Part shown: positions 39,424-56,135 of the stretch, in pieces
Numbering within the stretch: position 1 is the first letter of the stretch
Layout: each line of letters starts with the position of its first letter
NCBI RefSeq assembly: GCF_036237315.1
Contig: NZ_CP108356.1
Location: forward strand, 7,755,501 to 7,819,500
From: Streptomyces sp. NBC_01351
GTDB taxonomy: Bacteria; Actinomycetota; Actinomycetes; Streptomycetales; Streptomycetaceae
Length of the DNA stretch: 64,000 nucleotides
Direction of reading: 5' to 3'
Notes under the pieces: model-generated
Seen by the model: only the letters and a program-made list of their open reading frames with translations
What the model was told of the DNA's origin: nothing
Database searches by the model: none
Made by a program: the position numbers and the translations under genes

Positions 39424-40035
39424 TCAGACCTCCGGGAAGTCCGGGGCGATCCCCAGGGCCGGCGCGATCGCCCGCCAGACCGTCGACTGGGCCGTGGCCA
39501 GGTCGACCCGGGGGTCCTCCAGCATCAGACGGATGCCCAGGCCGTCGCACAGCGCCAGCACCAGCGTGCTGATCGAGGAGACGTCGCAGTCGGTGAACTC
39601 ACCCGAAGCGACGCCCCGTTCCACGACCCCGCCGACCCACGCGTGCAGCTGGTCGTACAGGTCGACGGCCAGGTGCCGGGCCGTCGCGTCGCGCTGGGCC
39701 CGTACCCACAGCTCCTGCCACAGCTTCCAGTCCTGGCGCAGCTCCGCGTCCGTGGGCAGCATGCTCCGTACGATCCGGGCCAGGACGGCGGCGGCCGGGA
39801 GCGAATCGTCCTCGCTGCCGGTGTCCGTACCGGTCTTCGCGAAGGAGTGCGTCATCGCTTCGGCGAACAGCTTCTCCCGCGTGTCGAAGTGGTAGTGCAG
39901 CAGCGCCTTGGAGACGGCGGCGTGCTCCGCGACCTTGCGCATGCTGACGTGTTCAAAACCGATGTCGGCGATCACTTCGCACGCGGCCGTGAGGATTCGC
40001 TCACGCGTTTCGAGTGCGCGCTCGGCCTTGGTCAC
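39424..40035 (-). CDS. TetR-family transcriptional regulator
   Basis: A 203-aa protein from the GTG at 40035, which follows aggggagc; the longer upstream ORF is repeat-rich and unlikely to be coding. Helix-turn-helix at about 10-55 (ERILTAACEVIADIGFEHVSMRKVAEHAAVSKALLHYHFDTREKLF). The C-terminal ligand domain resembles the BetI-type TetR_C. It is the last gene of the leftward catabolic run, and the 18-bp palindrome at 47873 is its likely operator. The ligand is probably an intermediate of the pathway. Confidence 0.9.
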   Translation of the reverse strand: MTKAERALETRERILTAACEVIADIGFEHVSMRKVAEHAAVSKALLHYHFDTREKLFAEAMTHSFAKTGTDTGSEDDSLPAAAVLARIVRSMLPTDAELRQDWKLWQELWVRAQRDATARHLAVDLYDQLHAWVGGVVERGVASGEFTDCDVSSISTLVLALCDGLGIRLMLEDPRVDLATAQSTVWRAIAPALGIAPDFPEV

Positions 40036-40172
40036 GTTGGCTGCTCCCCTTGTCGGCGCCCGTTGCATCGGGTGGGTGGGTGGATGGAAGGCCCGGGAGG
40101 CCCGGCCCGCCGGACCCCCATCCTCGCGCATGGGGCTTACGGGGTCCCGCCGTCGGGGCACCGCGGTCGGAA

Positions 40173-40217
40173 GACGGATGGTCAGGCGACGGATGGTCAG
40201 GCGACGGACGGTCAGGA
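40173..40217. repeat. 15-bp tandem repeat, three copies plus degenerate fourth
   Basis: Copies of gacggatggtcaggc occur at 40173-40187 and 40188-40202, with a variant at 40203-40217 and a decayed copy to about 40232. The repeat fills the end of the 204-bp gap between the hydroxyacyl-CoA dehydrogenase stop and the TetR gene. The function is unknown; it may serve as regulator binding sites or be neutral. Confidence 0.85.
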
Positions 40218-40239
40218 AACGGTCGGTCAAGACGTGCGG

Positions 40240-41100
40240 TCAGGAATAGGTGTGGAAACCCCGGCCGGTCTTCCGGCCGAGCAGGCCCGCGTCCACCATC
40301 CGCGCCAGCAACGGCGGCGGTGCGTACAGCGGCTCCCGGTACTCCGCGTACATCGACCGGGCGATGGCCTGGACGGTGTCCAGCCCGATCAGGTCGGCCA
40401 GGGCCAGCGGTCCGAGCGGATGCGCGCAGCCCAGGGTCATGCCGCGGTCGATGTCCTCGGCCGACGCGGTCCGCGATTCGGCCATCCGTACGGCGGCCAG
40501 CAGGTAGGGAACGAGGAGCGCGTTCACCACGAATCCCGCCCGGTCCTCGGCCCGGACCACCTGCTTGCCCAGCACGCCGGAGGCGAACTCCCGGGCGCGC
40601 AGGACCGTCTCCTCGGCGGTGAGCAGGGACGGCACCAGCTCGACCAGGGGAAGCACCGGGACGGGATTGAAGAAGTGGAGGCCGACGACCTGCTCCGGCC
40701 GGGACGTGGCCGCCGCCAGCCGGATGACCGGGATGGAGGAGGTGTTCGTCGCGAGCACCGCGTCCCTGCGCTCCACCGTTCGGTCGAGCCGGTCGAAGAC
40801 CTCCAGCTTCGCCCGCTCGTCCTCGGCGACCGCTTCGACGACGAGGTCCCGGTCCGCCATGCGCTCCATGTCCGTGGTCATCGCGATCCGGCCGACCGCC
40901 GCGTCCCGTTCGGCGTCCGTCAGCTTCCCGGCGGCCGAGGCGCGGGCCAGGGAACGGCGGATGCGCTCCAGGCCGGCGTCCGCGGCCGGTCTGCTCGTCT
41001 CCACCACCACCACGTCCCGCCCGGCGCGGGCGCAGACCTCGGCGATACCGGAGCCCATCAGGCCGCACCCCACGATCCCGACGCGTTCGACATCGGTCAT
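40240..41100 (-). CDS. 3-hydroxyacyl-CoA dehydrogenase (3-hydroxybutyryl-CoA type)
   Basis: A 286-aa enzyme of the HBD/FadB-C type. NAD-binding GCGLMGSGIA (11-20), catalytic histidine and glutamate region GLHFFNPVPVLPLVELVP with H in LHFFNP, SSIPVIRLAA and the C-terminal GLLGRKTGRGFHTY are diagnostic. It oxidises (S)-3-hydroxyacyl-CoA to 3-ketoacyl-CoA with NAD or NADP. In the leftward catabolic run it would follow the acyl-CoA dehydrogenases; no enoyl-CoA hydratase or thiolase is in this window. Confidence 0.94.
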   Translation of the reverse strand: MTDVERVGIVGCGLMGSGIAEVCARAGRDVVVVETSRPAADAGLERIRRSLARASAAGKLTDAERDAAVGRIAMTTDMERMADRDLVVEAVAEDERAKLEVFDRLDRTVERRDAVLATNTSSIPVIRLAAATSRPEQVVGLHFFNPVPVLPLVELVPSLLTAEETVLRAREFASGVLGKQVVRAEDRAGFVVNALLVPYLLAAVRMAESRTASAEDIDRGMTLGCAHPLGPLALADLIGLDTVQAIARSMYAEYREPLYAPPPLLARMVDAGLLGRKTGRGFHTYS

Positions 41101-42428: not shown

Positions 42429-43604
42429 TCAGGAGTGGCCGGGCAGAGCGAGTGCCCGCGTACCCCGCTTGACGAGCTCGTTGGCGATGATCAGGCGCTG
42501 GATCTCGGAGGTGCCCTCCCAGATGCGGTCGACGCGCAGTTCGCGGTACATCCGCTCGACGGGGTACGAGCGGTCGTAGCCGCGGCCCCCGAAGATCTGC
42601 ACGCACCGGTCGATGACCCGTCCGGCGGCCTCGCTCGCGGCGAGCTTCGCCGTCGACGCCTTGGCGTGCAGGGTCTTTGGATCGGTGTGCGGCTGGTCGG
42701 CCTCCCAGGCGACCTGGTGGGTGTAGGCGCGGTTGACGGCGATGTCGACGGCGCAGTCGGCGAGCATGCCCTGGATCAGCTGGAAGTCGGCGATGGGCGA
42801 GCCGAACTGGCGTCGCCGGACCGCCCAGTCGCGGGCGAGCTCCAGGGCCCGTTCGGCGGCGCCGACGGTCCGGGCGGCGATCATCAGCCGCTCGTCGGTG
42901 AACCACTCCTTGGTCAGCTCGTAGCCGTTCCCGACCCCGCCGAGCACGTCCTCGTCGGCGACGAAGACGTCGGTGAAGGTGAACTCGGGGTGCCCGTTCA
43001 CCGCGGAGTGCATGAACCGGGGGACCCGCGTCATCTCGACACCCGGTGCCTGCTTGTCCACGAAGAACAGGGTCGGGGCCCGCTCCGGGCCCGCATCGGC
43101 CTGCACCAGCAGGAAGTCCGAGATGTCGCCGCAGGTCACGAACCACTTCTCGCCGCTCACGAGCCAGCCGCCCTCGGTGCGGGTCGCGGTGCTCGTGCAC
43201 GAGCCGGGGTCGGAGCCCGCACCCGGTTCGGTGACCGCGAACGCGTCGAACCGCTCGCCCCGGATGACGGGCAGCAGGTACTTCTCGCGCTGTGCCTCGG
43301 TGCCGTGGGCGAGGACGTTCGCGGGCCGCCAGGGGATGTCCCAGAGGCAGTTGGTGACCTTGCCGAACTCCTCCTCGACGATGACCTGGTCCAGCAGGGA
43401 CAGGCCGGCCCCGCCCCATTCGGCGGGCATGTTGATCGCGTAGACGCCGGCGTCCATCGCGGCGCGGGTCAGTTCGCGGACCGTCTCGGCGGGCAGCGGG
43501 CCGCCCGCCTCCTCGGACTGGTCCTCGTACCCCATCAGGAGCTGGGCGTAGGCGGCGGCGCGGGCCTTGAGGTCGGCCTGCTCGGGCGTGTAGCGGAAGT
43601 CCAT
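42429..43604 (-). CDS. Acyl-CoA dehydrogenase (second paralogue)
   Basis: A 391-aa enzyme of exactly the same length as its downstream neighbour. The C-terminal halves are nearly identical (RQFGSPIADFQLIQG through RIWEGTSEIQRLII), whereas the N-terminal domain and substrate-facing parts differ (for example DIPWRPANVLAHGTEAQREKY against DMVWRPANALSFCTPEQRERY). The pair could form a heteromer or act on different acyl-CoAs. The 61-bp gap to the downstream paralogue suggests one transcript. Confidence 0.94.
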   Translation of the reverse strand: MDFRYTPEQADLKARAAAYAQLLMGYEDQSEEAGGPLPAETVRELTRAAMDAGVYAINMPAEWGGAGLSLLDQVIVEEEFGKVTNCLWDIPWRPANVLAHGTEAQREKYLLPVIRGERFDAFAVTEPGAGSDPGSCTSTATRTEGGWLVSGEKWFVTCGDISDFLLVQADAGPERAPTLFFVDKQAPGVEMTRVPRFMHSAVNGHPEFTFTDVFVADEDVLGGVGNGYELTKEWFTDERLMIAARTVGAAERALELARDWAVRRRQFGSPIADFQLIQGMLADCAVDIAVNRAYTHQVAWEADQPHTDPKTLHAKASTAKLAASEAAGRVIDRCVQIFGGRGYDRSYPVERMYRELRVDRIWEGTSEIQRLIIANELVKRGTRALALPGHS

Positions 43605-43664: not shown

Positions 43665-45743
43665 TCAGCCCAGGACGGCCCGGGCGTCCAGCGTCAGGGC
43701 GCCGTCCGGGCGGACCAGCAGGGGGTTGACCTCCAGCTCCGCGATCTCCGGATGGGCGGCGGCCACCGTCGTGATGCGTTCGATCACGGCGGCCGCGGCG
43801 GCCACGTCCACGGCCGGACGGCCGCGAACTCCCGCGAGCAGGGCGGCGGAACGGAGCCCCCGCAGCAGCTCCTCGGCCCGCCGGGCCGGTACGGGCGCCA
43901 GCGCGAAGGCCACGTCCCGCAGGGTCTCGGTGAGGATCCCGCCGAGCCCGACCATGGCCACCGGTCCGAACCGGGGGTCCCGGTTCACGCCCACGATCAG
44001 CTCGACGCCGTCCGAGAGGTCCGCCATCGCCTCCACCGAGTACGAGCCCGCGCCGAGCCGGGCGCGCATGTCCCGGTACGCGGCGAGGAGCGCGTCCCGG
44101 TCGGCCAGGCGCAGCGCCACGCCACCCGCGTCGGACTTGTGCAGCAGGTGCAGCGCCTTCAGCACGTACGGGCCCTCGAACTCCCCGGCCGCGGCCAGCA
44201 CTCCGGCCTCGTCGGTGACCTCACGTGCGGCCGGGAACGGCACACCGGCGGCGGCGAGCAGTCCGCGCACCCCGTGGTACCCGGCGTCCCGCAGCGGCGC
44301 GGCGGCGGCGGGCAGCGCGGCGAACTCCGGTGCGGAGCGCGCCGCCCGGCCGGTCATGGCAGCCAGCGCGCGAGCGGCGTCCTCGGTTGCGGCGAACACC
44401 GGTATCCCGGCCCCGGCCAGCACCCGGCAGCTCGGCGACCCCGGGTACATCGACTGGACCACCAGGGGCTTCGGCGAGCCCGCGAGGTGCGCGACGATCT
44501 TCTCGGCGGCCCGCGTCTCGCCCTCGGCGAGCACGGAGCCGCCCGCCTGGCCGCCGCCCAGGCCGCCCTCGGACGCCGCGTACCCGCCGAAGTAGCCCGT
44601 CATCAGGACCGCGTCGACCTCCTCGGCGCCCAGCAGGTGCGCGACTGTGTCGGCGTACGAGAGGGGCTGCTGCTCGCCCATCCCCGCCAGGTCGACCGGA
44701 TTGCCGACCGCGGACTGCTCCCACAGCACGGTCCGCAGCCCCGCCTGGGTCGCCGCGCCGAGCTCCGGTACGTCGAGCCCGGCGTCCTCGGCCGCGTCGG
44801 CCGCGATCGCGCCGTGCCCGCCGCCGTCGGTGAATACCGCGGTCCGGGTCCCTCCCGTACGAGGCCCCGGTCGGCTGCTCACGGCGGCCAGGACGACGGT
44901 CATCTCCCTCGGCGTGCACACGAGTTCGACCCCCGCGTCGCGGCAGGCGGCGGCCACGACGTCGGCCGAGGTGGTGAGCGCCCCGGTGTGCGACTGGGCG
45001 CTGCGGGCGGACGCGGAGCCGCGCCCGGCGGTGAGCAGCACCACCGGCTTGCCCGCCGCGGCGGCGGCCCGGGCGAAGGCCCTGCCGTCGCCGAAGTCCT
45101 CGGCGTACACGGCGATCGCCGCGGTGGCCTCGTGGCGGGCGCAGTCCTCGACGAGGTCGACGAGGGTGACGTCGGCCTGGTTGCCGAGGGAGACGAACCG
45201 GGAGAAGCCCAGGCCGTGCGGAGCGACGCGGAGTTGGAGTTCGAGGGCGAGGTTGCCGCTCTGGCTCAGCAGGGCGACACCGCCGGGCGCGAAACGGTCC
45301 GAGGCGAGGTACAGCTCGGTGGTGTTGTCGGCGATGCCGAGGCAGTTGGGTCCGACGAGCACGGCTCCGGCCTCCCGGACGCGGGCGACGACCGCGCGCT
45401 GCCGAGCCGCTCCCGCCGGACCGGCCTCGGCGAAGCCGGCGGTGATGCCGACGATCGCTTTGGCCCCGCAGGCCAGGGCGTCCTCCACGGCGGCCTCGAA
45501 GCCGCTGCCGGGGACGGAGACCACCACCAGCTCGACGGGTTCGCCGATCGCGGCGAGGGACGGGGCCGCCGGCTTGCCGAGGACGGTGCCGCCGCGCCGG
45601 TTCACCAGGTACACCGGCCGCCGCCGCCCTTCGGCGCGCAGCGCCTGGGAGGCCACCGCGTGGCCGTACTTCGCGGGGTCGTCGCTGGCGCCGACCACGG
45701 CGACCGAGCGGGGGTCGAACAGGGCGGTCAGATCGCGTTCCAT
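43665..45743 (-). CDS. ADP-forming acyl-CoA synthetase
   Basis: A 692-aa protein of the acetate-CoA ligase (ADP-forming) family. It has a CoA-binding domain (about 1-130, SVAVVGASDDPAKYGHAV), two succinyl-CoA-ligase-like domains with the phospho-histidine segment SHTGALTTSADV (about 253), and an ATP-grasp domain at the C-terminus (YVLKALHLLHKSDAGGVAL, MVGLGGILTE, ELEVNPLLV). It activates a carboxylic acid to its CoA ester. It follows the ferredoxin stop by 1 bp. In this locus it would activate the acid made by the aldehyde dehydrogenase. Confidence 0.92.
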   Translation of the reverse strand: MERDLTALFDPRSVAVVGASDDPAKYGHAVASQALRAEGRRRPVYLVNRRGGTVLGKPAAPSLAAIGEPVELVVVSVPGSGFEAAVEDALACGAKAIVGITAGFAEAGPAGAARQRAVVARVREAGAVLVGPNCLGIADNTTELYLASDRFAPGGVALLSQSGNLALELQLRVAPHGLGFSRFVSLGNQADVTLVDLVEDCARHEATAAIAVYAEDFGDGRAFARAAAAAGKPVVLLTAGRGSASARSAQSHTGALTTSADVVAAACRDAGVELVCTPREMTVVLAAVSSRPGPRTGGTRTAVFTDGGGHGAIAADAAEDAGLDVPELGAATQAGLRTVLWEQSAVGNPVDLAGMGEQQPLSYADTVAHLLGAEEVDAVLMTGYFGGYAASEGGLGGGQAGGSVLAEGETRAAEKIVAHLAGSPKPLVVQSMYPGSPSCRVLAGAGIPVFAATEDAARALAAMTGRAARSAPEFAALPAAAAPLRDAGYHGVRGLLAAAGVPFPAAREVTDEAGVLAAAGEFEGPYVLKALHLLHKSDAGGVALRLADRDALLAAYRDMRARLGAGSYSVEAMADLSDGVELIVGVNRDPRFGPVAMVGLGGILTETLRDVAFALAPVPARRAEELLRGLRSAALLAGVRGRPAVDVAAAAAVIERITTVAAAHPEIAELEVNPLLVRPDGALTLDARAVLG

Positions 45744-45744: not shown

Positions 45745-45936
45745 TCACTTCTCCACTCGGAGCGCGGAGTTGGGGCAGCTTTCGACGCAGGCGCGCGCCG
45801 CTTCCTCGGAGCCGGGCGGGACGGCGACGGCGAGGACCTTCGCGTAGCCCCACTCGTCGAGTTCGACCAGGTGGGGTGCGTGTTCCTGGCACAGTCCGTA
45901 GCCCTGGCAGCGGGTCGAGTCCAGCAGGAGTTTCAC
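45745..45936 (-). CDS. Small ferredoxin
   Basis: A 63-aa ferredoxin with GTG start. Cysteines RCQGYGLC (C-x5-C) and ACVESCP (C-x3-CP) match the single-cluster ferredoxins of actinomycetes, often [3Fe-4S], that usually serve P450s. No P450 lies nearby; the likely partners are the NuoF-like flavoprotein, whose gene overlaps by 4 bp, and the Rieske oxygenase encoded divergently. The gene is too short for many ORF finders but fits tightly between its neighbours. Confidence 0.92.
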   Translation of the reverse strand: MKLLLDSTRCQGYGLCQEHAPHLVELDEWGYAKVLAVAVPPGSEEAARACVESCPNSALRVEK

Positions 45937-47243
45937 GGTGTTCCCTTCAGCACGGGCGTGCGGGTTGCGGTCCGGTCGTCCTCGGCCGCGGTGGCGACCT
46001 CCGGAACAGGGACGGCGAGGCGGCGTCCGTGACCGCCCGCGGTCGGGGCGGCGGCGCCGCGGTCGGGGCACGGGCCACCGAGGTGGGACCGGACGTGTTC
46101 GGGGAAGGCGTACAGGAGGCTGCCGGCGATGCCGGCGGCGGCGTCGAGCAGGCCGCACGCTCCGCGCCCGGGCAGGCCCTGTGCCCACCGGTCCAGCCGG
46201 GCGGGGGTGTCGGGTCCGGCGGTGCCCGCGGTGAGCGCGTGCACGGCGTCGCGGATCGCAGCCGTGCCCGATACGCAGACGCCGCACTGGCGTGCGCTCT
46301 CGGCGGCGAGGTGGCCGACGGCGTCGGCGGCGGTGCGCACCGGGCAGGCGCCGGCGGTGAGGAAGCGGATCGCTCCGCAGCCCAGCGCGGTGCCCGCCGC
46401 GGCGAGTGCCTCGGGTTCGAGGGGGAGGTCCAGGGCGAGGGCGTCGACGAGCCCGCCGAACAGCCCGCCCATGAGGGCCCCGGCGGCGTCCGGGGTGCCG
46501 TGCGCGGCCGCCAGGGCGCGCAGCGTGACTCCGTAGGCGACTTCCGTGAGGACGGGGGCCGCGCTCCCGCCGGAGAGCGTCACCAGGGTGGAGCGGGCGA
46601 TCGCCTGCCGCAGGTCGGGCCGTGCGGCGGTGAGGGCGATGCGGGCGAGGGTCTCGACGTTGGACACCAGGGTCGGTGCGCCGCCGACGCCCCGTTCGAA
46701 GGGGCGGGGCGGTTTGGCGGTGGGCAGGGCCGGCCCGCCGTCGATGCGGCGGACGACCGCGCTCTCCTCCCCGGCGACGTAGGTGTGGGCGGTCTCGACG
46801 ACCTCGACGAGCAGCCGCGGCTCCCGTTCGGCGAGGGCCCGGCGGACGCGGTCTGCCGCGACCGGGTCCGAGAGGTAGACGTAGCCGCGTACGGCGCCGG
46901 TGACCGCGGCGGCGCGGGCGAGCCCGTCCAGGACCAGGTGGGGCCGGGCCCGCAGCAGCCAGCGGTCCTTGACCGATCCGGGCTCGCCCTCCTCGCCGTT
47001 CGCCACCACCACCGGGACGCCGCCGCGGTCGCGGACGGCGGCCAGTTTCACGGCGGCCGGGAAGCCGGCCCCGCCCCGCCCGCGCAGGCCGGATGCGGAA
47101 AGGTGCTGCAGCAGTTCGTCGGGGCAGGTGGCGCCGGCGTAGCCGCCGGTGGCGCGGTAGGCCTCGGCGTCCTCCGTCAGGCCCGGCGTTGCGCCGAGTA
47201 CGCCGCCGGGCGGCGGGGTGGTCGGAAGTCGGATCGTGGTCAT
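45933..47243 (-). CDS. NuoF-like NADH-oxidising flavoprotein
   Basis: A 436-aa protein related to the NuoF subunit of complex I. The FMN/NADH region is clear: GLRGRGGAGFPAAVK (about 52-66), ANGEEGEPGSVKDR (about 80-93), AGEESAVVRRIDGG and PTLVSNVETLA. An SLBB-like domain follows. The C-terminal Fe-S domain keeps cysteines in QCGVCVSG and ACGLLD, but not in the exact NuoF spacing. It should pass electrons from NADH to the co-encoded ferredoxin. Both neighbours overlap it by 4 bp. Confidence 0.88.
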   Translation of the reverse strand: MTTIRLPTTPPPGGVLGATPGLTEDAEAYRATGGYAGATCPDELLQHLSASGLRGRGGAGFPAAVKLAAVRDRGGVPVVVANGEEGEPGSVKDRWLLRARPHLVLDGLARAAAVTGAVRGYVYLSDPVAADRVRRALAEREPRLLVEVVETAHTYVAGEESAVVRRIDGGPALPTAKPPRPFERGVGGAPTLVSNVETLARIALTAARPDLRQAIARSTLVTLSGGSAAPVLTEVAYGVTLRALAAAHGTPDAAGALMGGLFGGLVDALALDLPLEPEALAAAGTALGCGAIRFLTAGACPVRTAADAVGHLAAESARQCGVCVSGTAAIRDAVHALTAGTAGPDTPARLDRWAQGLPGRGACGLLDAAAGIAGSLLYAFPEHVRSHLGGPCPDRGAAAPTAGGHGRRLAVPVPEVATAAEDDRTATRTPVLKGTP

Positions 47244-47928: not shown

Positions 47929-47933
47929 GGCTG
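47916..47933. promoter_or_regulatory. Inverted repeat over the rightward -10
   Basis: The repeat cagccag-caat-ctggctg has perfect 7-bp arms centred on the -10 hexamer. It differs in sequence from the TetR-type palindrome, so a second regulator may bind here. Confidence 0.5.
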
Positions 47934-48048
47934 TCCAATCGGTCAGCAAGGCCTCGGCGTCCGCCCCGGCCCGCTGCCCACCGTTGGGTCGTCTCGATGT
48001 CCATCGCCGAGACCGATCGCCGCACCGCCGGCACGGAGGAGTCACCCG

Positions 48049-49224
48049 ATGCACTCCAGAGCCCCTGAGGAACCCCCGGTCGACCAGCCGGTCCCGGACG
48101 CACCAGGGCCCGCCTTGTCAGCCCGCTACTACACCGATCCCGATACTGCCGCCGCCGAGACCCGAGAGGTCTTCGCCAAGGCCTGGCAGCTGGTCTGCCA
48201 CGAATCCGACCTGCCGAACCCGGGCGCCCGGCTCGCCGCCACCGTCGCGGGCCGCGAGGTGCTGGTCGTCCGTACCGAGGACGGCGCCCTCGCCGCCCAC
48301 CTCAACGTGTGCCGGCACCGCGGAACGCGCCTGGTCACCGCCCCCGAACCGGCCGGCAAGGCGATCCGCTGCCCCTACCACGGCTGGACCTACCGCCTCG
48401 ACGGAAGCCTTGTCGGCGCCCCTGAGGCCCGGCAGATCCCCTGCCTCGACAAGCCCGCGCTCGGCCTGTTCCCGGCCCGCGTCGAGTCCTTCCTCGGCTT
48501 CGTCTTCGTCAACCTCGACTTCGACGCCGTACCGCTGGCGAAGCAGTGCGCCGGACTCGCCGAAGCGGTCGGCCACTATGCCGGAGCCGACCTCGTACCG
48601 GTCGGCCGCAGCCGGATCCACGACCTGGCCGGCGCCGAAGTACAGCAGGCCAACTGGAAGGTGGCGGTCGACAACTACCTGGAGGGCTACCACGTCCCGG
48701 TGGCCCATCCCGGTCTGATGCGGCTGCTCGACTACCAGGGCTACACCTGCGAGATCGAGGAGTCCTACGCGCTGTTCGCCTCGCCCCTGCGGGAGAAACC
48801 CTCCTCGAACTGGGCCGAACGCCTCTACCAGCGCATCGCCGCCCCGATGCCCGGCCTCGCCGAAGCCGACCGGCGGGTCTGGCGGTACGCGGTGATCTAC
48901 CCGAACACCCTCATCGACTTCTACCCCGACCACGTGCTGGCCTGGACCGCGATCCCCACGGCGGTGGACCGGGTGGCCGTACCCGGCGCCTTCTACACCC
49001 GGCGCGGCACGGGCCTGCGCACCCGCCTCGCCCGCCGCCTGAACATCCACATCGGCTGGATCACCAACGACGAGGACGCCGAGCTGGTCGCCCGCGTCCA
49101 ACAGGGGCTCTCCACCCCCGGTTTCGAACCCGGGCCCCTGTCCCGCCGCGAGTCGGCGGTCGGCTGGTTCGCCGGCCGCATCCGAGCCGACCTCGACGCC
49201 GAGGCCGACGCCGGCCGGCGCTGA
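48049..49224 (+). CDS. Rieske non-heme iron oxygenase, large subunit
   Basis: A 391-aa protein. The Rieske [2Fe-2S] ligands are C88 and H90 (VCRHRG) and C108 and H111 (CPYHGWTY). The mononuclear iron site is H215 and H220 with bridging D208 in DNYLEGYHVPVAHPGL. This arrangement is like choline/carnitine-type monooxygenases and aryl-ring hydroxylases. There is no beta subunit or dedicated reductase alongside, so electrons probably come from the divergently encoded NuoF-like protein and ferredoxin. ggagga precedes the ATG. It heads the polyamine-type import and oxidation genes. Confidence 0.93.
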   Translation: MHSRAPEEPPVDQPVPDAPGPALSARYYTDPDTAAAETREVFAKAWQLVCHESDLPNPGARLAATVAGREVLVVRTEDGALAAHLNVCRHRGTRLVTAPEPAGKAIRCPYHGWTYRLDGSLVGAPEARQIPCLDKPALGLFPARVESFLGFVFVNLDFDAVPLAKQCAGLAEAVGHYAGADLVPVGRSRIHDLAGAEVQQANWKVAVDNYLEGYHVPVAHPGLMRLLDYQGYTCEIEESYALFASPLREKPSSNWAERLYQRIAAPMPGLAEADRRVWRYAVIYPNTLIDFYPDHVLAWTAIPTAVDRVAVPGAFYTRRGTGLRTRLARRLNIHIGWITNDEDAELVARVQQGLSTPGFEPGPLSRRESAVGWFAGRIRADLDAEADAGRR

Positions 49225-49294: not shown

Positions 49295-50425
49295 ATGTCC
49301 CCCGAGGCACACTCCCTGTCCAGGCGCTCCTTCCTCCGCGCCGGCACCGCCGCGACCCTCGGCCTCACGGCCGCCGGTTGCGGGTTCGCATCCGGTGACG
49401 ACCCGGCCGGCAAGGCGTCCGAAACGCCGCCCATCGACGTCAAGGTCGACGGCGACCTGGTCTATTTCAACTGGGCCGACTTCATCGACCCGGCCGTCTT
49501 CGAAGGCTTCGAGAAGGAGTACGGCGTCAAGGTCGTCCAGTCGAACTACGACTCCATGGAAGGCATGGCCGCCAAGCTCAACTCCGGGAACCGGTACGAC
49601 ATCATCTTCCCCACGGCGAAGTGGTCGCAGCGCCTCGCCGCCGGAGGCAAACTGCGCGCCATCGACCACACCCGGCTGAAGAACGCCGAGGCCGTGTTCG
49701 GCGGTTACGACTACTTCGCCGACCCCTGGTACGACCCCGGCTCCCGGCACACCGTCCCCTTCACCATGTACAAGACCGGCATCGGCTGGCGCCGCGACCG
49801 GCTCGGGGACCTGACCGGATCCTGGGACGACCTGTGGAACGAGCAGGCCAAGGGCAAGGTCTTCGTACTCGACGACCGCGACGAGGTGCTCGGCATGGGC
49901 GCGCTCAAACTCGGCCTCGGCCTCAGCACCGAAGAGCCCAAGGACCTCGCACGGGTCACCGACACCCTGCGCTCGCTCCGCCCCCACCTGCGCGGCTTCT
50001 CCAGCGACAGCTACAACAACCTGCTCAACGGCAACGCCGACATGACCCAGGCCTGGAGCGGCGACATGGCGGCCATGCTCGCCCAGGCGGAGGACCCCGC
50101 CGTCTTCGGCTTCGAAGTCGCCCGGGAGGGCGCCCCCGTCAACTCCGACTGCTACGCCATCCCCGCCGACGCACAGCACCCCGGCACCGCGATGCTCTTC
50201 ATCGACTACATGCTCCGCCCCGAGAACGTGAAGAAGAACATCGAGTACATCGGCTACCCGATGCCCGTCCGCGGCAGCGAGGACACCTACACCGCGCTCG
50301 TGGAGCCCTTCCCCCAGTGCCTGGTGACGGCGGCCGACCTCAAGGACGACCTCTACTTCCGCAACGGCACGGCCAAGGGCGAACAGCAGCGCGACACCGC
50401 CTGGACCGACGTGAAGGCCGGCTGA
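49295..50425 (+). CDS. potD: Polyamine-type ABC transporter substrate-binding lipoprotein
   Basis: A 376-aa PotD/PotF-like protein. The N-terminus combines a twin-arginine motif (RRSFLR) with a lipobox (LTAAGC, cysteine near residue 28), so it is exported folded and lipidated. The mature protein has VYFNWADFIDP and YDSMEGMAAKLNSGNRYDIIFPT, typical of spermidine/putrescine binders, and NSDCYAIPADAQHP in the second lobe. The ligand is likely a diamine, polyamine or similar cation. It is the first of four contiguous pot-type genes. Confidence 0.92.
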   Translation: MSPEAHSLSRRSFLRAGTAATLGLTAAGCGFASGDDPAGKASETPPIDVKVDGDLVYFNWADFIDPAVFEGFEKEYGVKVVQSNYDSMEGMAAKLNSGNRYDIIFPTAKWSQRLAAGGKLRAIDHTRLKNAEAVFGGYDYFADPWYDPGSRHTVPFTMYKTGIGWRRDRLGDLTGSWDDLWNEQAKGKVFVLDDRDEVLGMGALKLGLGLSTEEPKDLARVTDTLRSLRPHLRGFSSDSYNNLLNGNADMTQAWSGDMAAMLAQAEDPAVFGFEVAREGAPVNSDCYAIPADAQHPGTAMLFIDYMLRPENVKKNIEYIGYPMPVRGSEDTYTALVEPFPQCLVTAADLKDDLYFRNGTAKGEQQRDTAWTDVKAG

Positions 50426-50426
50426 C

Positions 50427-51332
50427 GTGCTTCGACCGAACCGATCCGCAACGGCCCGTCCGCCGCACGGCGGACGGGCCGGCGCGGAGGCGAGACTCTG
50501 GACCCGGCTCATGATCCCCGGCACCCTCTGGATGACCGGATTCCTCCTCGCCTCCCTCGTCCTGGTGGCCACCCTCGCGTTCGGAACCACCGACCCGCTC
50601 GGAAACCCGCGCTTCGGCCTCAACTTCGACAACTTCGCCGCCCTCGCCCAACCGGCCTACCGCACCGTCCTGCTGCGCTCCCTCGGCTACGCGCTGATCA
50701 CCTGCCTCATCTGCCTGGCCGTGGCCTACCCGGTCGCCTACGCCATCGCGCTGCGCGGCGGCCGCTTCAAGAACCTGCTGATCGCCGCGATCGTCGTACC
50801 GTTCTTCGCCAACTACCTGGTGCGGATGTACGGCTGGTCCGTCGTCCTCTCCGACGACGGACCGCTCCTGGACGCCCTGCGCGCCATCGGCATCGCCGAC
50901 GACGGCACCAAGATCCTGCAGACCGGACCGGGGGTCATCGCCGGGCTCGTCTACGGCTTCGTGGTCTTCATGATCATCCCGTTGTACGCGGCCATGGAAC
51001 GCATGGACACCTCGCTCATCGAGGCCGGGCGCGACCTGTACGGAGGCCCGCTTCGGACCTTCCTCTTCGTCACCGTCCCCGCCACCCGGCAGGGAGCGGC
51101 CGCCGGCTGCGTCCTCGTCTTCCTGCCCGCCATGGGCGACTTCGTCAGCGCACAGCTCATGGGAGGCCCCGACCAGATCATGATCGGCAACCTGATCCAG
51201 GACAAGTTCTTCCAGGGCCAGAACTGGCCCCTCGGCTCGGCCCTGACCATCCTGCTGATGGCGGTCCTGCTCCTCGGGATGCTCGGCTACCTGCGGCGCA
51301 CCCGCAAGGACGAGGCGGAGGCGGCCCGATGA
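50427..51332 (+). CDS. potB: Polyamine-type ABC transporter permease (PotB-like)
   Basis: A 301-aa membrane protein with six helices. The EAA coupling loop is visible as AMERMDTSLIEAGRDLYGGPLRTFLFVTVP. The GTG at 50427 follows the binding-protein stop by 1 bp, and the gene overlaps the next permease by 4 bp. It forms half of the transmembrane pore for the co-encoded binding protein and ATPase. Confidence 0.93.
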   Translation: MLRPNRSATARPPHGGRAGAEARLWTRLMIPGTLWMTGFLLASLVLVATLAFGTTDPLGNPRFGLNFDNFAALAQPAYRTVLLRSLGYALITCLICLAVAYPVAYAIALRGGRFKNLLIAAIVVPFFANYLVRMYGWSVVLSDDGPLLDALRAIGIADDGTKILQTGPGVIAGLVYGFVVFMIIPLYAAMERMDTSLIEAGRDLYGGPLRTFLFVTVPATRQGAAAGCVLVFLPAMGDFVSAQLMGGPDQIMIGNLIQDKFFQGQNWPLGSALTILLMAVLLLGMLGYLRRTRKDEAEAAR

Positions 51333-52300
51333 CCCCAGGTCCCGCCCCCCGCCGGGCCGCCCGCGCCGAGCCCTGGCCGCCGGCCGACCAGGCCGACCTG
51401 GCCGACCCGCCCGAGCACGCCGCCCTTGCGGGCGCCGACGGAACACGGGCCCTGCCCGCCGCCCGCCGACCGCTCCGGCGTCGCCGCCGCGGAGCCGATC
51501 GCCGGCCCCGCTTCGCCATCGCCGTCACCGCGGCCTTCTTCGCCCTGCTCTACCTCCCCGTCGCCGTCGTCGTCCTGTTCTCCTTCAACGCGCAGAAGTC
51601 CCTCACCGTCTTCGACGGCGTCAGCCTCCGCTGGTACACGGCGTTCCTCCACGACGACGCGCTGATCGACTCGCTCGGCATGAGCCTGCGGGTATCCCTG
51701 GTCGCCATGGCGGGCTCGCTCGTCCTCGGCGTGGCCCTGGCCCTCGGCCTGGTCCGGGGCCGCGGCCGCCTCGGCTCCTTCGCGGGTCTGGTCATGCTCG
51801 TCCCGCTCATCACACCGGAGATCGTCACCGGCGTGGCGGCGATGATGCTCTTCAAGGGCCTCGGCGTCACCCTGTCCACCACCACCGTGATGCTCGCCGA
51901 GATCACCTTCTCCATCTCCTACGTCACGGTCATCCTGCGCTCCCGCATCGCCGCCCTCAACCCGGAGGTCGAGGAGGCCGCGAGGGACCTCGGTGCCACC
52001 CGCCGCCAAGCCCTGTTCCTGGTGACCCTGCCCGCACTGCTGCCCAGCATCCTCGCCTCCGGGGTGCTGATCTTCGCCCTGGTCTTCGACGACTTCGTCC
52101 TCGCCTACTTCACCACCGGCGTCGACCCACAGCCGCTGTCCGTCCGCATCTACTCGGCGATCAGGTTCGGCGTCCAGCCCACCATCAACGCCGTCGGCAC
52201 GCTGATGCTCCTCGGATCCATCGGCCTCATCGTGCTCGCGCTCGCCATCCCGCGCCTGTTCGGCCGCCGCGGCGGCCTCGACCTGCTTTCCGGGAAGTGA
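51329..52300 (+). CDS. potC: Polyamine-type ABC transporter permease (PotC-like)
   Basis: A 323-aa membrane protein, longer than usual because of a roughly 65-residue charged N-terminal extension (basic and proline-rich) before TM1. The EAA loop reads NPEVEEAARDLGATRRQALFLVTLP, and VLFSFNAQKSLTVFDGVSLRWY after TM1 is typical of PotC. The ATG at 51329 overlaps the potB stop. It pairs with PotB to form the pore. Confidence 0.93.
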   Translation: MTPGPAPRRAARAEPWPPADQADLADPPEHAALAGADGTRALPAARRPLRRRRRGADRRPRFAIAVTAAFFALLYLPVAVVVLFSFNAQKSLTVFDGVSLRWYTAFLHDDALIDSLGMSLRVSLVAMAGSLVLGVALALGLVRGRGRLGSFAGLVMLVPLITPEIVTGVAAMMLFKGLGVTLSTTTVMLAEITFSISYVTVILRSRIAALNPEVEEAARDLGATRRQALFLVTLPALLPSILASGVLIFALVFDDFVLAYFTTGVDPQPLSVRIYSAIRFGVQPTINAVGTLMLLGSIGLIVLALAIPRLFGRRGGLDLLSGK

Positions 52301-52305
52301 CCCCC

Positions 52306-53409
52306 ATGCACCCCTCGCCTGTCCACCCGCACCCCGCCGTCCGGCTCGACCGGGTCGCCAAGCAGTACCGCAACGCCGACACCTACGCCGTCCGCGACGT
52401 CACCCTCGACGTGGCCGCCGGCGAGTTCTTCTCCCTCCTCGGCCCCTCCGGCTGCGGCAAGACCACCCTGCTGCGCATGACCGGCGGCTTCGCCGACCCC
52501 ACGGAAGGCAGCATCCTGCTCGACGGCCAGGACGTCACCGGGCTCCCGCCCAACAAGCGCAACGTCAACACCGTCTTCCAGAGCTACGCCCTCTTCGACC
52601 ACCTCTCGCTCGCCGACAACGTGGCCTTCGGCCTCAAGCGCAAGGGCGTCGCCCGCGCCGAGATCCGCGAACGGGTCGCCGACATGCTCGACCTCGTCCA
52701 GCTGGGGGGCCTGGCCGACCGCAAGCCGGCCACGCTCTCCGGCGGCCAACGGCAGCGCGTCGCCCTCGCCCGCGCCCTGGTCAACCGGCCCCAAGTCCTG
52801 CTGCTGGACGAGCCGCTGGCCGCCCTCGACCTCAAACTCCGCCGCCGGATGCAGGTCGAACTGAAGCAGATCCAGCGCGAGGTGGGCATCACCTTCGTCT
52901 TCGTCACCCACGACCAGGACGAGGCCCTGACCATGTCGGACCGCCTCGCCGTCATGAACGAGGGCCGCATCGAGCAGTGCGGCACGCCCGAGGACGTGTA
53001 CGAGCGCCCGACGAGCAGCTTCGTGGCCTCCTTCATGGGCACCTCCAACCTCGTCCCCGGCACCTACCGCTCCGGCCGGGTCCTCCTCGACGAGGGTCCC
53101 GCCCTGCCCGTGGGCCCCCGCTCGGGCGTCCCCGAGGGCAGCCGGGTGAGCCTCTCGATCCGCCCCGAGAAGATCTGGCTCTCCGACTTCGAACCGGGCA
53201 TGGCCCAGGTCGGCGGAGTCGTCCGGGAGACCGTCTACTGCGGCCCGACCACCACCTACCTCATCGAACTGGCCCCGGGCATCACGCTGTCCGTGCTCGA
53301 ACAGAACACCGTCCGCTCCCGCATGGAGGACCGCTGGAGCGGCGGCGAGCGGGTCGAGATCGCCTGGAAGCCCGAACACTGCCTGGTCCTCGACCACGCC
53401 GACGCCTGA
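52306..53409 (+). CDS. potA: Polyamine-type ABC transporter ATP-binding protein (PotA-like)
   Basis: A 367-aa ATPase with Walker A GPSGCGKTT (about 45-53), signature LSGGQRQRVALARAL, Walker B LLLDEPLAALDLKLR, H switch in FVTHDQDEALTMSDR, and a C-terminal TOBE domain (from about 250, SIRPEKIWLS) as in PotA. The ATG at 52306 has gggaa 10 nt upstream; the GTG at 52297 is too close to that site to be used. It powers the importer. Confidence 0.94.
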   Translation: MHPSPVHPHPAVRLDRVAKQYRNADTYAVRDVTLDVAAGEFFSLLGPSGCGKTTLLRMTGGFADPTEGSILLDGQDVTGLPPNKRNVNTVFQSYALFDHLSLADNVAFGLKRKGVARAEIRERVADMLDLVQLGGLADRKPATLSGGQRQRVALARALVNRPQVLLLDEPLAALDLKLRRRMQVELKQIQREVGITFVFVTHDQDEALTMSDRLAVMNEGRIEQCGTPEDVYERPTSSFVASFMGTSNLVPGTYRSGRVLLDEGPALPVGPRSGVPEGSRVSLSIRPEKIWLSDFEPGMAQVGGVVRETVYCGPTTTYLIELAPGITLSVLEQNTVRSRMEDRWSGGERVEIAWKPEHCLVLDHADA

Positions 53410-53425
53410 CCGGAGGGCACCCCCC

Positions 53426-54742
53426 ATGAACCACGACGTCATCGTGCTCGGCGCCGGACTGGCCGGTCTCGCCGCCGCGCGCGACCTGGCCGCCGGCGGA
53501 GCCGACGTCCTCGTCGTCGAGGCCCGGGACCGGGTCGGCGGACGCGTCGAACAGACCGCCCTCCCCGACGGCCGGCTGGTCCAGCTCGGCGGGGAGGTGG
53601 TGGGCCGCGCCCACACCGCGTACACCGCCCTGACCGCGGAGTTGGGCCTCACCCTGGTCCCCAGCTACGTCGCCGAGCCCGGCGCCCTCATCCGCGCCAC
53701 CCCCGAGGGGATCTCCGCCGGCGACCCGCCCCACTGGTTCGGCCCCGGTGACGAGGCCTGCCACGCCAAGGTCACCACCGCCTTCACCGCGCTCGCCGGA
53801 ACCGTCGACCCGGCCGACCCCTGGTCCCACCCCGAGGCCGCACACCTGGACGGCCTGTCAGTGGGCGACTGGCTCCGCTCCCAAGGCGCCACCCAGGCCG
53901 TCGGACGCCTCTGGGAGATCGGCCAACTCGCCCTCGCCGACGGCTCCTGCGAACGCACCTCCCTGCTCGCCGCCCTCCGCAAGCACGCCGCCGTCCCCGG
54001 CAGCGGCCACTACGAGTACGAGGCATGGGAGGGCCTGCGGGTCGCCGAAGGCTCCGCCACCGTGGCCCTGCGCATGGCCGAGGCCCTCGGCGGCCGGATC
54101 CGTACGGGCTCACCCGTCCGGGCCGTCGAGATACGTGGGCCGGGCCGCTGCACGGTACGCCTGGCGGGCGGCGAAACCCTGACCGCCGCCGCCGTGGTCA
54201 GCGCCCTCCCCGTCGGCCCGCTCCGCTCGGTCACCGTCACCGGCGTCTCCGACGAACGCCTCGCCTCCCTGCACCGCCAACGCCACGCCCTCGCAGCCAA
54301 GTTCACCGCCGCCTACGCCAGACCCTTCTGGCGCGACCGCGGCCTCAGCGGCCTGTCCGAATGCGAAGGACTCCTCGGCAGCACCTGGCCGCAGAGCGAA
54401 GGCGTCCTCTCCGCCCTCGTCCCGCCCGAACGCTACGGCGTCCTGCTCGCCGCGCCCGCCCCCCTGCGCACCGCCGAACTGCTGGCCGACATGGCCCGCC
54501 TCTACGGCGAGGAGGCACGGCACCCGCTCGCCACGTACGTCCGCATGTGGGGCACCGACCCGTGGACCCAGGGCTACGTCACCCAGTGGACCCCCGGCGA
54601 CGTCATGGCCGTCGGCCCCAGGCACGGTACCCACGAACCCCCCTTCTACATATGCGGATCCGACCAATGGGTGGCCGGCTACATGGAAGGCGCCGTACGC
54701 ACCGGACGCGACGCCGCCAAGGAGGCGCTGCGCCGTGGCTGA
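53426..54742 (+). CDS. FAD-dependent amine oxidase
   Basis: A 438-aa flavin amine oxidase of the MAO/PAO family. N-terminal FAD motif VIVLGAGLAGLAAARDLAAGGADVLVVEARDRVGGR, mid-region GSATVALRMAEALGGRI with SALPVGPL, and the C-terminal YICGSDQWVAGYMEGAVRTGRDAA that binds the isoalloxazine. It would oxidise a primary or secondary amine to an aldehyde with ammonia (or an amine) and peroxide. It lies 16 bp after the ATPase gene and overlaps the aldehyde dehydrogenase by 8 bp. Confidence 0.92.
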   Translation: MNHDVIVLGAGLAGLAAARDLAAGGADVLVVEARDRVGGRVEQTALPDGRLVQLGGEVVGRAHTAYTALTAELGLTLVPSYVAEPGALIRATPEGISAGDPPHWFGPGDEACHAKVTTAFTALAGTVDPADPWSHPEAAHLDGLSVGDWLRSQGATQAVGRLWEIGQLALADGSCERTSLLAALRKHAAVPGSGHYEYEAWEGLRVAEGSATVALRMAEALGGRIRTGSPVRAVEIRGPGRCTVRLAGGETLTAAAVVSALPVGPLRSVTVTGVSDERLASLHRQRHALAAKFTAAYARPFWRDRGLSGLSECEGLLGSTWPQSEGVLSALVPPERYGVLLAAPAPLRTAELLADMARLYGEEARHPLATYVRMWGTDPWTQGYVTQWTPGDVMAVGPRHGTHEPPFYICGSDQWVAGYMEGAVRTGRDAAKEALRRG

Positions 54743-56135
54743 CGACCTGCACAACCACATCGGGGGAGTGGACCGCCCCGCCGCCTCGGGCGCGACCATG
54801 CCCCTCACCGACCCCGCCACCGGCCGGGTGCACGGCCACGCCCCGCGCTCCGGCCCCGCCGACACGGACGCCGCCTGCTTCACCGCGGCAGCGGCGTACG
54901 GGCACTGGTCCACCACCACCCCGGCAGCCCGGCAGCGCGCCCTCCTCGGCATCGCCGACGCCGTCGAGGCGCACGCGGAGGCCTTCACGGCCGCCGAAAC
55001 CCGCGACACCGGCAAGCCCGCGGACCAGTTCAGGACCGAGGAACTGCCCGCGATCGTCGATACCTTCCGCTACTTCGCCGGAGCCGCGCGGAACCTCCCC
55101 GGCGCCGCGGCCGCCGAGTACACCGAGGGCCGCACCTCCCTGCTGCGCCGCGAACCCGTCGGCGTCTGCGCGCAGATCACCCCCTGGAACTATCCGCTGA
55201 TGATGGCCGCGTGGAAGATCGCCCCGGCGATCGCCGCCGGGAACACCACCGTGCTCAAACCCGCCGACACCACCCCCTCCTCGTCCGTGCTGCTGGCCCG
55301 GATCGCCGCGCGGCACCTGCCGCCGGGCGTGCTCAACGTCGTCTGCGGAGACCGCGACACCGGCCGCTCCCTCACCGCCCACCCGGCGGTCGCCCTGATC
55401 GCCGTCACCGGCAGCGTCCGCGCCGGCCAGGAGATCGCGGCGGCCGCCGCGGCCGACCTCAAACGGGTCCACCTGGAGCTCGGCGGCAACGCCCCCGCCG
55501 TCGTCCACGAGGACGTGGACGTCGAGTCCACGGCCGCCGCCCTCGCCGCGGTCGCCTACTACAACGCCGGCCAGGACTGCACCGCACCCACCCGGCTCCT
55601 GGTCCACCGCCGCGTCCACGACGCCTTCCTCGCGGCCTTCGCCGGCGCAACGGCCAAGCTCCGCACGGGTGTCGACTTCGGCCCCCTCAACAACGCGACC
55701 CAACTCGCCTCGGTACGGGCCCTGCTGGACCGCCTGCCGTCCCACGCCGAGATCGTCACCGGCGGCGGCCGGTTGCCGGGCCCCGGCTTCTTCCACGAGC
55801 CGACGGTCGTGGCCGGAGTGCGCCAGGACGACGAGATCGTGCAGGAGGAGATCTTCGGCCCCGTCGTGACCGTCCAGCCCTTCGCCGACGAGGCCGAGGC
55901 CCTGCACCTCGCCAACGGCGTGCGCTTCGGCCTCGCCGCGAGCGTATGGACCACCGACCACGACCGCGCGATGCGCGCCACCCGCGCCCTGCACACCGGC
56001 ATCGTCTGGGTGAACACCCACGGCACCACGGTCTCCGAGATGCCGCACGGCGGCGTCAAACACTCCGGCTACGGCAGCGACCTCTCCCTGTCCGGTCTCC
56101 TGGACTACACCCAGGCCAAGCACGTCATGCTCTGA
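54735..56135 (+). CDS. Aldehyde dehydrogenase (aminobutyraldehyde/betaine-aldehyde type)
   Basis: A 466-aa NAD(P)-dependent aldehyde dehydrogenase. Catalytic residues are N152 (TPWNYP), E248 (ELGGNAP) and C282 (GQDCTAPTR). The C-terminal HGTTVSEMPHGGVKHSGYGSDLS closely resembles gamma-aminobutyraldehyde and betaine-aldehyde dehydrogenases. GTG start inside the amine oxidase gene (8-bp overlap) implies translational coupling, so it probably takes the aldehyde made by that oxidase to the acid. Confidence 0.94.
   Translation: MADDLHNHIGGVDRPAASGATMPLTDPATGRVHGHAPRSGPADTDAACFTAAAAYGHWSTTTPAARQRALLGIADAVEAHAEAFTAAETRDTGKPADQFRTEELPAIVDTFRYFAGAARNLPGAAAAEYTEGRTSLLRREPVGVCAQITPWNYPLMMAAWKIAPAIAAGNTTVLKPADTTPSSSVLLARIAARHLPPGVLNVVCGDRDTGRSLTAHPAVALIAVTGSVRAGQEIAAAAAADLKRVHLELGGNAPAVVHEDVDVESTAAALAAVAYYNAGQDCTAPTRLLVHRRVHDAFLAAFAGATAKLRTGVDFGPLNNATQLASVRALLDRLPSHAEIVTGGGRLPGPGFFHEPTVVAGVRQDDEIVQEEIFGPVVTVQPFADEAEALHLANGVRFGLAASVWTTDHDRAMRATRALHTGIVWVNTHGTTVSEMPHGGVKHSGYGSDLSLSGLLDYTQAKHVML

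What the first reader, a model, noticed from the sequence alone, without database searches (positions are those of the whole stretch)
39424..56135. Divergent locus for uptake and oxidation of an amine followed by beta-oxidation of the product
One control region drives a leftward run (hypothetical, NuoF-like, ferredoxin, ADP-forming acyl-CoA synthetase, two acyl-CoA dehydrogenases, 3-hydroxyacyl-CoA dehydrogenase, TetR) and a rightward run (Rieske oxygenase, Pot-type importer, amine oxidase, aldehyde dehydrogenase). Domain assignments are direct. Inferred pathway: import of a cationic amine, oxidation to aldehyde and acid, CoA activation, dehydrogenation and 3-hydroxyacyl oxidation, with the Rieske enzyme hydroxylating or N-demethylating a substrate. 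This combination exceeds ordinary putrescine or spermidine use and suggests a substituted polyamine, betaine-like or aryl-alkyl amine.
Basis: partly seen in the sequence, partly recalled or inferred. Interest (0 to 1): 0.78.

Follow-up and report, generated by a model that had tools for sequence, protein, structure and literature searches.

The report
Co-regulated amine uptake and breakdown locus
A Streptomyces chromosome carries one jointly controlled, widely conserved set of fifteen genes that most likely imports a positively charged, perhaps N-methylated amine and burns it as a coenzyme-A thioester, together with an oxygenase whose electron supply looks unusual.

Summary
In detail: window 39424-56135 is a divergent 15-gene locus (HypA, NuoF-like, ferredoxin, acyl-CoA synthetase ACS, two ACADs, HCDH, TetR | Rieske, PotDBCA, amine oxidase, ALDH). 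It is one unit: 30 of 40 named relatives keep all 14 other genes, and four misses are contig ends. The same 8 same-genus genomes of 296 hold close orthologs of HypA, NuoF, ACS, PotD and amine oxidase. Dyads 57 bp apart mark the control region in 39 of 42 loci. ACS and ACADa travel with hydratase- and SDR-like genes elsewhere, supporting beta-oxidation. Best reading: a diamine-like cation is imported, oxidised to an acid, CoA-activated and beta-oxidised; the CntA/Stc2-like Rieske enzyme acts at the charged nitrogen, probably fed by NuoF-like protein and ferredoxin, although that pair also occurs without a visible Rieske gene (L142, L143). N-methylation is favoured because amine-oxidase homologs adjoin dimethylglycine-oxidase-like genes. 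Substrate unproven; plain polyamine and guanidino amine remain rivals. Listings of searches showed no description of this locus. New variant of a known kind.

The parts
39424..40035 (-). TetR-family regulator (BetI-type C-terminal domain), last gene of the leftward run
   Evidence: Pfam TetR_N and TetR_C_6; start codon chosen; relocated to just after Rieske in family f3 genomes, Streptacidiphilus and the G333 group, still inside the locus
40240..41100 (-). 3-hydroxybutyryl-CoA dehydrogenase (HCDH)
   Evidence: NCBIfam PRK07819 473.9 bits, cut-off 319; in 30 of 40 named loci, not found in 5 untruncated ones and in the reduced L029
41192..42367 (-). acyl-CoA dehydrogenase ACADa
   Evidence: Pfam; WEGTSEIQR motif (sequence; its catalytic role recalled)
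42429..43604 (-). acyl-CoA dehydrogenase ACADb, paralog of ACADa
   Evidence: Pfam; same motif
43665..45743 (-). NDP-forming acyl-CoA synthetase (ACS)
   Evidence: Pfam CoA_binding_2, Succ_CoA_lig, ATP-grasp_5; closest solved 4-hydroxybutyrate-CoA ligase 8wzu
45745..45936 (-). 63-aa ferredoxin, CXXYXXC(X)nCP type
   Evidence: Fer4_15 (on the longer ORF); motif class in PMC6237146 (passages)
45933..47243 (-). NuoF-like flavoprotein with altered cluster motif (CGVCVSG)
   Evidence: Complex1_51K and NADH_4Fe-4S; alignment A6
47240..47698 (-). HypA, small orphan helical protein tied to this locus
   Evidence: no Pfam; in 9 of 296 genomes, each with locus genes; AlphaFold mean pLDDT 81
47873..47890 (.). 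operator 1, perfect 18-bp dyad GCTGACCGATCGGTCAGC
47930..47947 (.). operator 2, 2 mismatches, 57 bp after operator 1
48049..49224 (+). Rieske oxygenase alpha subunit, closest solved relatives CntA and Stc2
   Evidence: Pfam, PDB sequence search, alignment with E. coli YeaW, fold
49295..50425 (+). PotD-like polyamine-binding protein
   Evidence: pocket residues
50427..51332 (+). PotB-like permease
   Evidence: BPD_transp_1
51329..52300 (+). PotC-like permease
   Evidence: BPD_transp_1
52297..53409 (+). PotA-like ATPase
   Evidence: ABC_tran and TOBE_2
53426..54742 (+). FAD amine oxidase (MAO family), closest solved putrescine oxidase
54735..56135 (+). aldehyde dehydrogenase, aminobutyraldehyde type
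   Evidence: NCBIfam PRK13473 615.2 bits, cut-off 615; closest solved 1wnb and 6c43

Best explanation
This is one TetR-controlled catabolic regulon for a small cationic amine, most likely an N-methylated (tertiary or quaternary) diamine or polyamine derivative. PotABCD imports it. The putrescine-oxidase-like flavoenzyme turns a primary amino end into an aldehyde and the aldehyde dehydrogenase makes the acid. The NDP-forming synthetase makes the CoA thioester. ACADa and ACADb, a hydratase supplied from elsewhere in the genome, and the 3-hydroxyacyl-CoA dehydrogenase run a beta-oxidation round. The Rieske enzyme works at the cationic nitrogen (oxidative N-demethylation or C-N cleavage, as in Stc2 and CntA). 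Its electrons come from NADH through the NuoF-like flavoprotein and the small ferredoxin, with HypA as an accessory. TetR on its two operators represses both arms until an intermediate binds. Shown by comparison: gene families, single locus, conserved dyads, co-inheritance. Inferred: every reaction, the electron route, TetR binding, the substrate and the inducer.
For: Single unit; the same 8 same-genus genomes (own included) of 296 hold close orthologs of HypA, NuoF, ACS, PotD and the amine oxidase. Dyads: two in the divergent region, 0.08 expected, the only copies within 2 mismatches in 8.9 Mb, paired at 57 bp in 39 of 42 loci. Amine side: PotD keeps the acidic residues of PotD/PotF, amine oxidase nearest putrescine oxidase, ALDH just passes the aminobutyraldehyde cut-off. 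Beta-oxidation: HCDH passes PRK07819; in 3 of 5 loci of the G333 group, which all lack HCDH, hydratase-like and SDR-like genes stand with ACS and the ACADs, and 4 of 4 small loci (L223-L226) hold SDR, ACS, ACADa, hydratase and MFS homologs. Rieske: nearest solved chains CntA and Stc2; E212 and Y210 align with CntA E205 and Y203; NYLEGYH in 52 of 52 cluster loci read. Electron supply: NuoF-like genes also sit near Rieske oxygenases in unrelated loci L135 and L140, with an adjoining Fer4_15 ferredoxin in L140; S. sioyaensis L029 keeps only TetR, NuoF, HypA and Rieske. N-methylation: amine-oxidase homologs (54-57%) adjoin dimethylglycine-oxidase-like proteins in two other genera.
Against: No biochemistry. 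NuoF and ferredoxin stand side by side without a Rieske match in L142 (beside Pot and ACS), and no Rieske gene was seen beside the pair in L143, so the pair may serve another acceptor; the five G333-group loci have Fd, HypA and Rieske but no NuoF match. CntA was active only on quaternary amines and needs CntB; none of the locus genes hits such a reductase family. The Rieske enzyme lacks the Cys206/Cys209 pair, and Y210 also occurs in relatives with a bridging Asp. The PotD pocket has lost the distal aromatic residue. No hydratase or thiolase gene lies in the window locus. HCDH is not found in 5 of 35 untruncated loci, L029 aside. ALDH of the G333 group is only 38-39% identical where placed, so that step is not strictly conserved. 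A third MAO-only genome, G323, shows no demethylase neighbour. ACS relatives beside 5-guanidino-2-oxopentanoate decarboxylases point to guanidino compounds instead.
Confidence: 0.42

Rival explanations
1. The substrate is an ordinary polyamine (putrescine, cadaverine or spermidine). MAO and ALDH give GABA, 5-aminovalerate or beta-alanine, and the CoA enzymes beta-oxidise the omega-amino acid; the Rieske enzyme N-dealkylates spermidine or hydroxylates the amino acid.
For: Putrescine-oxidase and aminobutyraldehyde-dehydrogenase kinship; acidic PotD pocket; variants that pair Pot and/or MAO with ACS with no Rieske match in the stretch (L142, L187, L188) or only a distant one at 34% (L186).
Against: CntA rejects GABA and its mono- and dimethyl forms, a weak argument at about 30% identity. 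Streptomyces coelicolor has a glutamylation route for these polyamines (PMC8998196 passages). It leaves the Rieske/NuoF/Fd/HypA part without an obvious need.
Confidence: 0.27
2. The substrate is a guanidino amine such as agmatine; the acid is 4-guanidinobutyrate and the CoA route degrades it.
For: ACS relatives (39-53%) lie beside 5-guanidino-2-oxopentanoate decarboxylase and an amino-acid dehydrogenase: L196 passes that NCBIfam cut-off (539.7 against 500), L193 does not (438.4); plasmid loci L232 and L233 are so annotated; L228 looks alike but was not scanned. ACAD matches stand in all five of these loci.
Against: None of the five shows a MAO, PotD or Rieske match at 1e-3. No locus gene hits a ureohydrolase family, and no Rfam family was found in the window. 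Agmatine would need no Rieske step.
Confidence: 0.15
3. The locus makes a CoA thioester precursor for a natural product instead of degrading a nutrient.
For: 4-guanidinobutyryl-CoA serves as a polyketide starter in Streptomyces (recalled; one search lists Streptomyces polyketide papers that hold the term).
Against: A dedicated ABC importer, hydratase-bearing variants, and no PKS or NRPS domain among the locus genes; I did not search flanks for them.
Confidence: 0.06
4. Two unrelated operons happen to lie back to back.
For: L029 keeps only part of the set, and L219 has no Pot genes.
Against: Co-inheritance and shared paired dyads.
Confidence: 0.03

Closest known systems
Carnitine monooxygenase CntA/CntB (YeaW/YeaX) and stachydrine demethylase Stc2 (Rieske group V)
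   Same: Closest solved relatives of the Rieske protein; bridging Glu, facial triad and Rieske ligands aligned
   Different: About 30% identity to YeaW, no Cys pair, no CntB-type reductase in the locus; NuoF-like plus CXXYXXC ferredoxin nearby instead; coupled to CoA enzymes
Putrescine oxidase plus aminobutyraldehyde dehydrogenase with PotABCD import
   Same: Same enzyme families and import type
   Different: Product seems to go to CoA activation and beta-oxidation; no aminotransferase gene in the locus
Gamma-glutamylated polyamine pathway of Streptomyces coelicolor (GlnA2/GlnA3, EpuRI)
   Same: Polyamine use in Streptomyces (PMC8998196 passages)
   Different: No glutamine-synthetase-type gene among the locus genes; TetR-type regulator
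Complex I subunit NuoF and HydB-type flavoproteins
   Same: FMN and NADH motifs (roles recalled)
   Different: Third Cys of the CGxCxPC cluster motif is replaced; no other complex I gene in the locus; far below the NuoF cut-off (161.7 against 558.65)

Membership tests
Rieske group V (quaternary ammonium oxygenases) | Rieske ligands (two Cys, two His) plus 2-His-1-carboxylate | tested here: met
   C88, H90, C108, H111, H215, H220 and D343 invariant in 22 aligned sequences; D343 as the carboxylate is by alignment
Rieske group V (quaternary ammonium oxygenases) | Bridging glutamate (CntA E205) | tested here: met
   E212 aligns with it and is kept in 52 of 52 cluster loci read; nearest non-cluster relatives L059-L062 have Asp
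Rieske group V (quaternary ammonium oxygenases) | Aromatic residue at CntA 203 (clade Va) | tested here: inconclusive
   Y210 is there, but also in relatives with a bridging Asp
Rieske group V (quaternary ammonium oxygenases) | Cys-X-X-Cys beside the iron, reported for some members | tested here: not met
   G213 and V216 (PMC10952381 passages)
Rieske group V (quaternary ammonium oxygenases) | Oxidises a quaternary ammonium substrate | not testable with these tools
   Needs an enzyme assay
PotABCD polyamine importer | Polyamine-binding residues of PotD/PotF | tested here: inconclusive
   PotF W37, E185, W244, D247, D278 and Y314 (roles recalled) kept in the window and 19 of 19 relatives, D39 in 17 of 19; F276/W255 is Asn in the window and 18 of 19
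Aminobutyraldehyde dehydrogenase (PRK13473) | Score above the NCBIfam subfamily cut-off | tested here: met
   615.2 against 615; the equivalog TIGR03374 is not reached (488.7 against 909.3)
Putrescine oxidase | Diamine-specific active-site Glu324 (recalled) | tested here: inconclusive
   The alignment shifts by one residue there
Complex I NuoF | NuoF score cut-off and four-Cys cluster site (site recalled) | tested here: not met
   161.7 against 558.65; CGVCVSG
CXXYXXC(X)nCP ferredoxins | Motif with Tyr at the variable position | tested here: met
   CQGYGLC ... CP, class described in PMC6237146 (passages)
CXXYXXC(X)nCP ferredoxins | Neighbouring cytochrome P450 | tested here: not met
   None among the locus genes
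Glutamylpolyamine pathway | Glutamine-synthetase-type ligase in the locus | tested here: not met
   None among the locus genes; the flanking GCS2 ligase gene had no match in 47 relatives' stretches

The most novel reading that the evidence does not exclude
The locus encodes an undescribed aerobic, CoA-dependent pathway for N-methylated or quaternary diamines, and an undescribed Rieske electron chain: NADH to a NuoF-like flavoprotein with an altered cluster, to a CYP-type CXXYXXC ferredoxin, to the oxygenase, with the orphan helical protein HypA as obligate partner. (Probability lowered from 0.33 to 0.30 after one search showed a NuoF-ferredoxin pair without a Rieske match in L142.)
Probability: 0.3. 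Interest if true: 0.72.

Novelty: new variant of a known kind. Interest (0 to 1): 0.56.

Why it matters
If right, it adds a carbon and nitrogen source to soil actinomycetes, a new way to feed electrons to Rieske oxygenases (useful for biocatalysis), and a compact, operator-marked regulon whose inducer can be found by simple growth and reporter tests. The locus genes are found in 8 of the 31 same-genus genomes listed, so it is not rare.
Full report
Observation. The window lies at G000:C1:7755501-7819500 of an 8.9-Mb genome; the closest named Rieske relatives are in Streptomyces. ORFs and Pfam confirm every gene in the finding. The leftward run is HypA 47240-47698, NuoF-like 45933-47243, ferredoxin 45745-45936, NDP-forming acyl-CoA synthetase (ACS) 43665-45743, ACADb 42429-43604, ACADa 41192-42367, HCDH 40240-41100 and TetR 39424-40035. 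The rightward run is Rieske 48049-49224, PotD, PotB, PotC, PotA, amine oxidase 53426-54742 and ALDH 54735-56135. The neighbours are a FecCD-type uptake operon and a GCS2 ligase gene; the latter had no match in 47 relatives' stretches.

One locus, not two. Among 60 other genomes, 7 have a Rieske ortholog at 74-81% identity and the next-best hit has 34%. Six of the seven hold the entire set; the seventh contig ends inside NuoF. Among 40 named Streptomyces and Streptacidiphilus loci 30 hold all 14 other genes. Of the ten misses four are contig ends (L035, L039, L040, L051), five have no HCDH match (L020, L036, L043, L054, L055) and one, S. sioyaensis L029, is reduced to TetR, NuoF, HypA and Rieske, its TetR match being free of stops. 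In 296 genomes of the class the same eight same-genus genomes, own included, hold NuoF at 60% or more, PotD at 70% or more, ACS at 75% or more, HypA and the amine oxidase at 75% or more; the other 23 same-genus genomes appear in none of these at those levels. In G320 the pieces lie on different contigs. HypA occurs in one further genome, G333, which has the locus without NuoF. In family f3 genomes (L016-L019), Streptacidiphilus (L043, L055) and the G333 group (5 of 5) TetR has moved to just after Rieske, but stays inside the locus.

Control. The 350-bp region between the two arms holds a perfect 18-bp dyad, GCTGACCGATCGGTCAGC at 47873-47890, and a two-mismatch copy 57 bp further on. Two matches against 0.08 expected were found in the window. 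In the whole genome the only copies within two mismatches are these two; seven three-mismatch places compare with two for the backwards control. In relatives the dyad has drifted to ACTAACCAATTAGTCAGC and the like, yet 41 of 42 loci examined have a site and 39 have a pair at 57 bp. The miss is L039, where only 116 bases precede the Rieske match; Streptacidiphilus L043 and L055 have no pair at 57 bp, only overlapping matches at one place. The matrix was seeded from these loci; outside the region it rings twice in 816,466 bases. In L029 no site was found within 5 mismatches. Drift of the site with its spacing kept is what a TetR protein co-evolving with its own operators would give. Binding itself is inferred.

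Amine side. PotD is closest to putrescine- and spermidine-binding proteins. Of the residues that bind polyamines in E. coli PotF (recalled), W37, E185, W244, D247, D278 and Y314 are kept in the window and 19 of 19 relatives and D39 in 17 of 19, but the distal Phe/Trp is Asn in the window and 18 of 19. The amine oxidase is closest to putrescine oxidase. The ALDH just reaches the aminobutyraldehyde subfamily cut-off (615.2 against 615) and falls short of the equivalog. So a diamine-like ligand is likely, with one end altered.

CoA side. ACS is closest to 4-hydroxybutyrate-CoA ligase. Both ACADs keep the catalytic-Glu motif (role recalled). HCDH passes the PRK07819 cut-off. The missing hydratase appears in relatives. 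Of nine ACS homologs at 55% or more in the genus of G333 (13 of 198 genomes had a hit), five lie in a Rieske locus (L185, L219-L222); all five have HypA, Fd, ACS, an ACAD, TetR, Rieske and MAO matches, four have PotD-A, none has NuoF or HCDH, and three (L185, L221, L222) have hydratase and SDR homologs. The other four (L223-L226) have SDR, ACS, ACADa, hydratase and MFS homologs and none of the Rieske, MAO or PotD genes. The L185 hydratase is ECH-like but below its best subfamily cut-off (177 against 355); only it and the L185 SDR and L224 MFS were scanned with HMMs. ACS and ACADa thus look like an acid-degrading core fed by different uptake modules. The window's genome has 18 ECH_1 matches, none inside the window, so the step can be supplied.

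Rieske enzyme and its electrons. Closest solved chains by sequence are CntA and Stc2. E212 and Y210 align with the bridging Glu205 and Tyr203 of CntA; the Cys pair is missing (PMC7948474 passages and its substrate-binding section read, PMC10952381 passages read). NYLEGYH is kept in 52 of 52 cluster loci read, against NYSDGLH in L059-L062. By fold, CntA, terephthalate dioxygenase and Stc2 are tied. No locus gene hits a CntB-type reductase family. The ferredoxin has the CXXYXXC(X)nCP motif of P450-associated ferredoxins (PMC6237146 passages), and no P450 is among the locus genes. The NuoF-like protein keeps the FMN and NADH motifs but has CGVCVSG in place of the CGxCxPC cluster motif (complex I roles recalled). 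Of 14 non-cluster NuoF-like loci read, L135 and L140 have a Rieske oxygenase close by, L140 with an adjoining Fer4_15 ferredoxin, and L138, L139 and L149 have a small Rieske ferredoxin nearby; L134 has an unscanned look-alike; the other eight showed no Rieske partner. Among these eight L142 and L143 have NuoF and ferredoxin side by side, so the pair may also serve other acceptors. The retained TetR-NuoF-HypA-Rieske set of L029 favours the Rieske; the lack of NuoF in the G333 group speaks against a fixed partnership.

What is the amine? Three hints favour N-methylation. First, the Rieske kinship. Second, amine-oxidase homologs of G118 (57%) and G106 (54%) lie directly beside dimethylglycine dehydrogenase/oxidase-like proteins (DAO, FAO_M and GCV_T domains, 380 bits to 4pab in L248; in L249 only the end of such a protein is on the contig); the third MAO-only genome, G323, shows nothing of the kind. 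Third, a solA-annotated oxidase stands beside distant ACS relatives on two Streptomyces plasmids. The same plasmids, and L196, carry 5-guanidino-2-oxopentanoate decarboxylase, which hints at guanidino compounds instead. CntA itself rejects GABA and its mono- and dimethyl forms, which argues against plain polyamines only if specificity is shared.

Literature. Searches listed no paper whose title or abstract describes this combination; I saw 4 of 4, 20 of 22, 20 of 82, 12 of 424, 1 of 1 and 10 of 13 hits, and the library is open-access only. Searches served other points. The described Streptomyces polyamine route is glutamylation (PMC8998196 passages).

Verdict. The locus is real, single, co-inherited and probably co-regulated.

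Noticed in passing
L029 7244-11125: Streptomyces sioyaensis keeps only TetR, NuoF-like, HypA and Rieske of the locus, with open frames; no dyad found within 5 mismatches.
   Followed up: partly
L232 3828-13710 and L233 3581-13617: Streptomyces plasmids carry an amino-acid dehydrogenase, a solA-annotated oxidase, ACS, SDR, 5-guanidino-2-oxopentanoate decarboxylase and ACAD together, probably another amine or amino-acid route.
   Followed up: partly
L223-L226: Small cluster of SDR, ACS, ACADa, hydratase and MFS homologs without the amine genes, perhaps importing the acid directly.
   Followed up: partly
L142 208-12958 and L188 5200-15591: Variants with Pot importer and ACS beside genes that look (by eye) like 5-oxoprolinase subunits and a cysteine hydrolase; a possible lactam link.
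   Followed up: no
L134, L136-L139, L141, L148, L149: A NuoF-like gene recurs with amidohydrolase-like genes (by eye) and, in the three loci checked, a small Rieske ferredoxin in other actinobacteria.
   Followed up: partly
L248 9323-13144, L249 27-2037: Amine oxidase directly beside a dimethylglycine-oxidase-like protein in two genera.
   Followed up: yes
window 37279-39345: One ORF carries two FecCD permease stretches beside a siderophore-type uptake operon.
   Followed up: no
window 56533-57723: GCS2-family carboxylate-amine ligase just after the locus, with no match in the relatives' stretches.
   Followed up: partly
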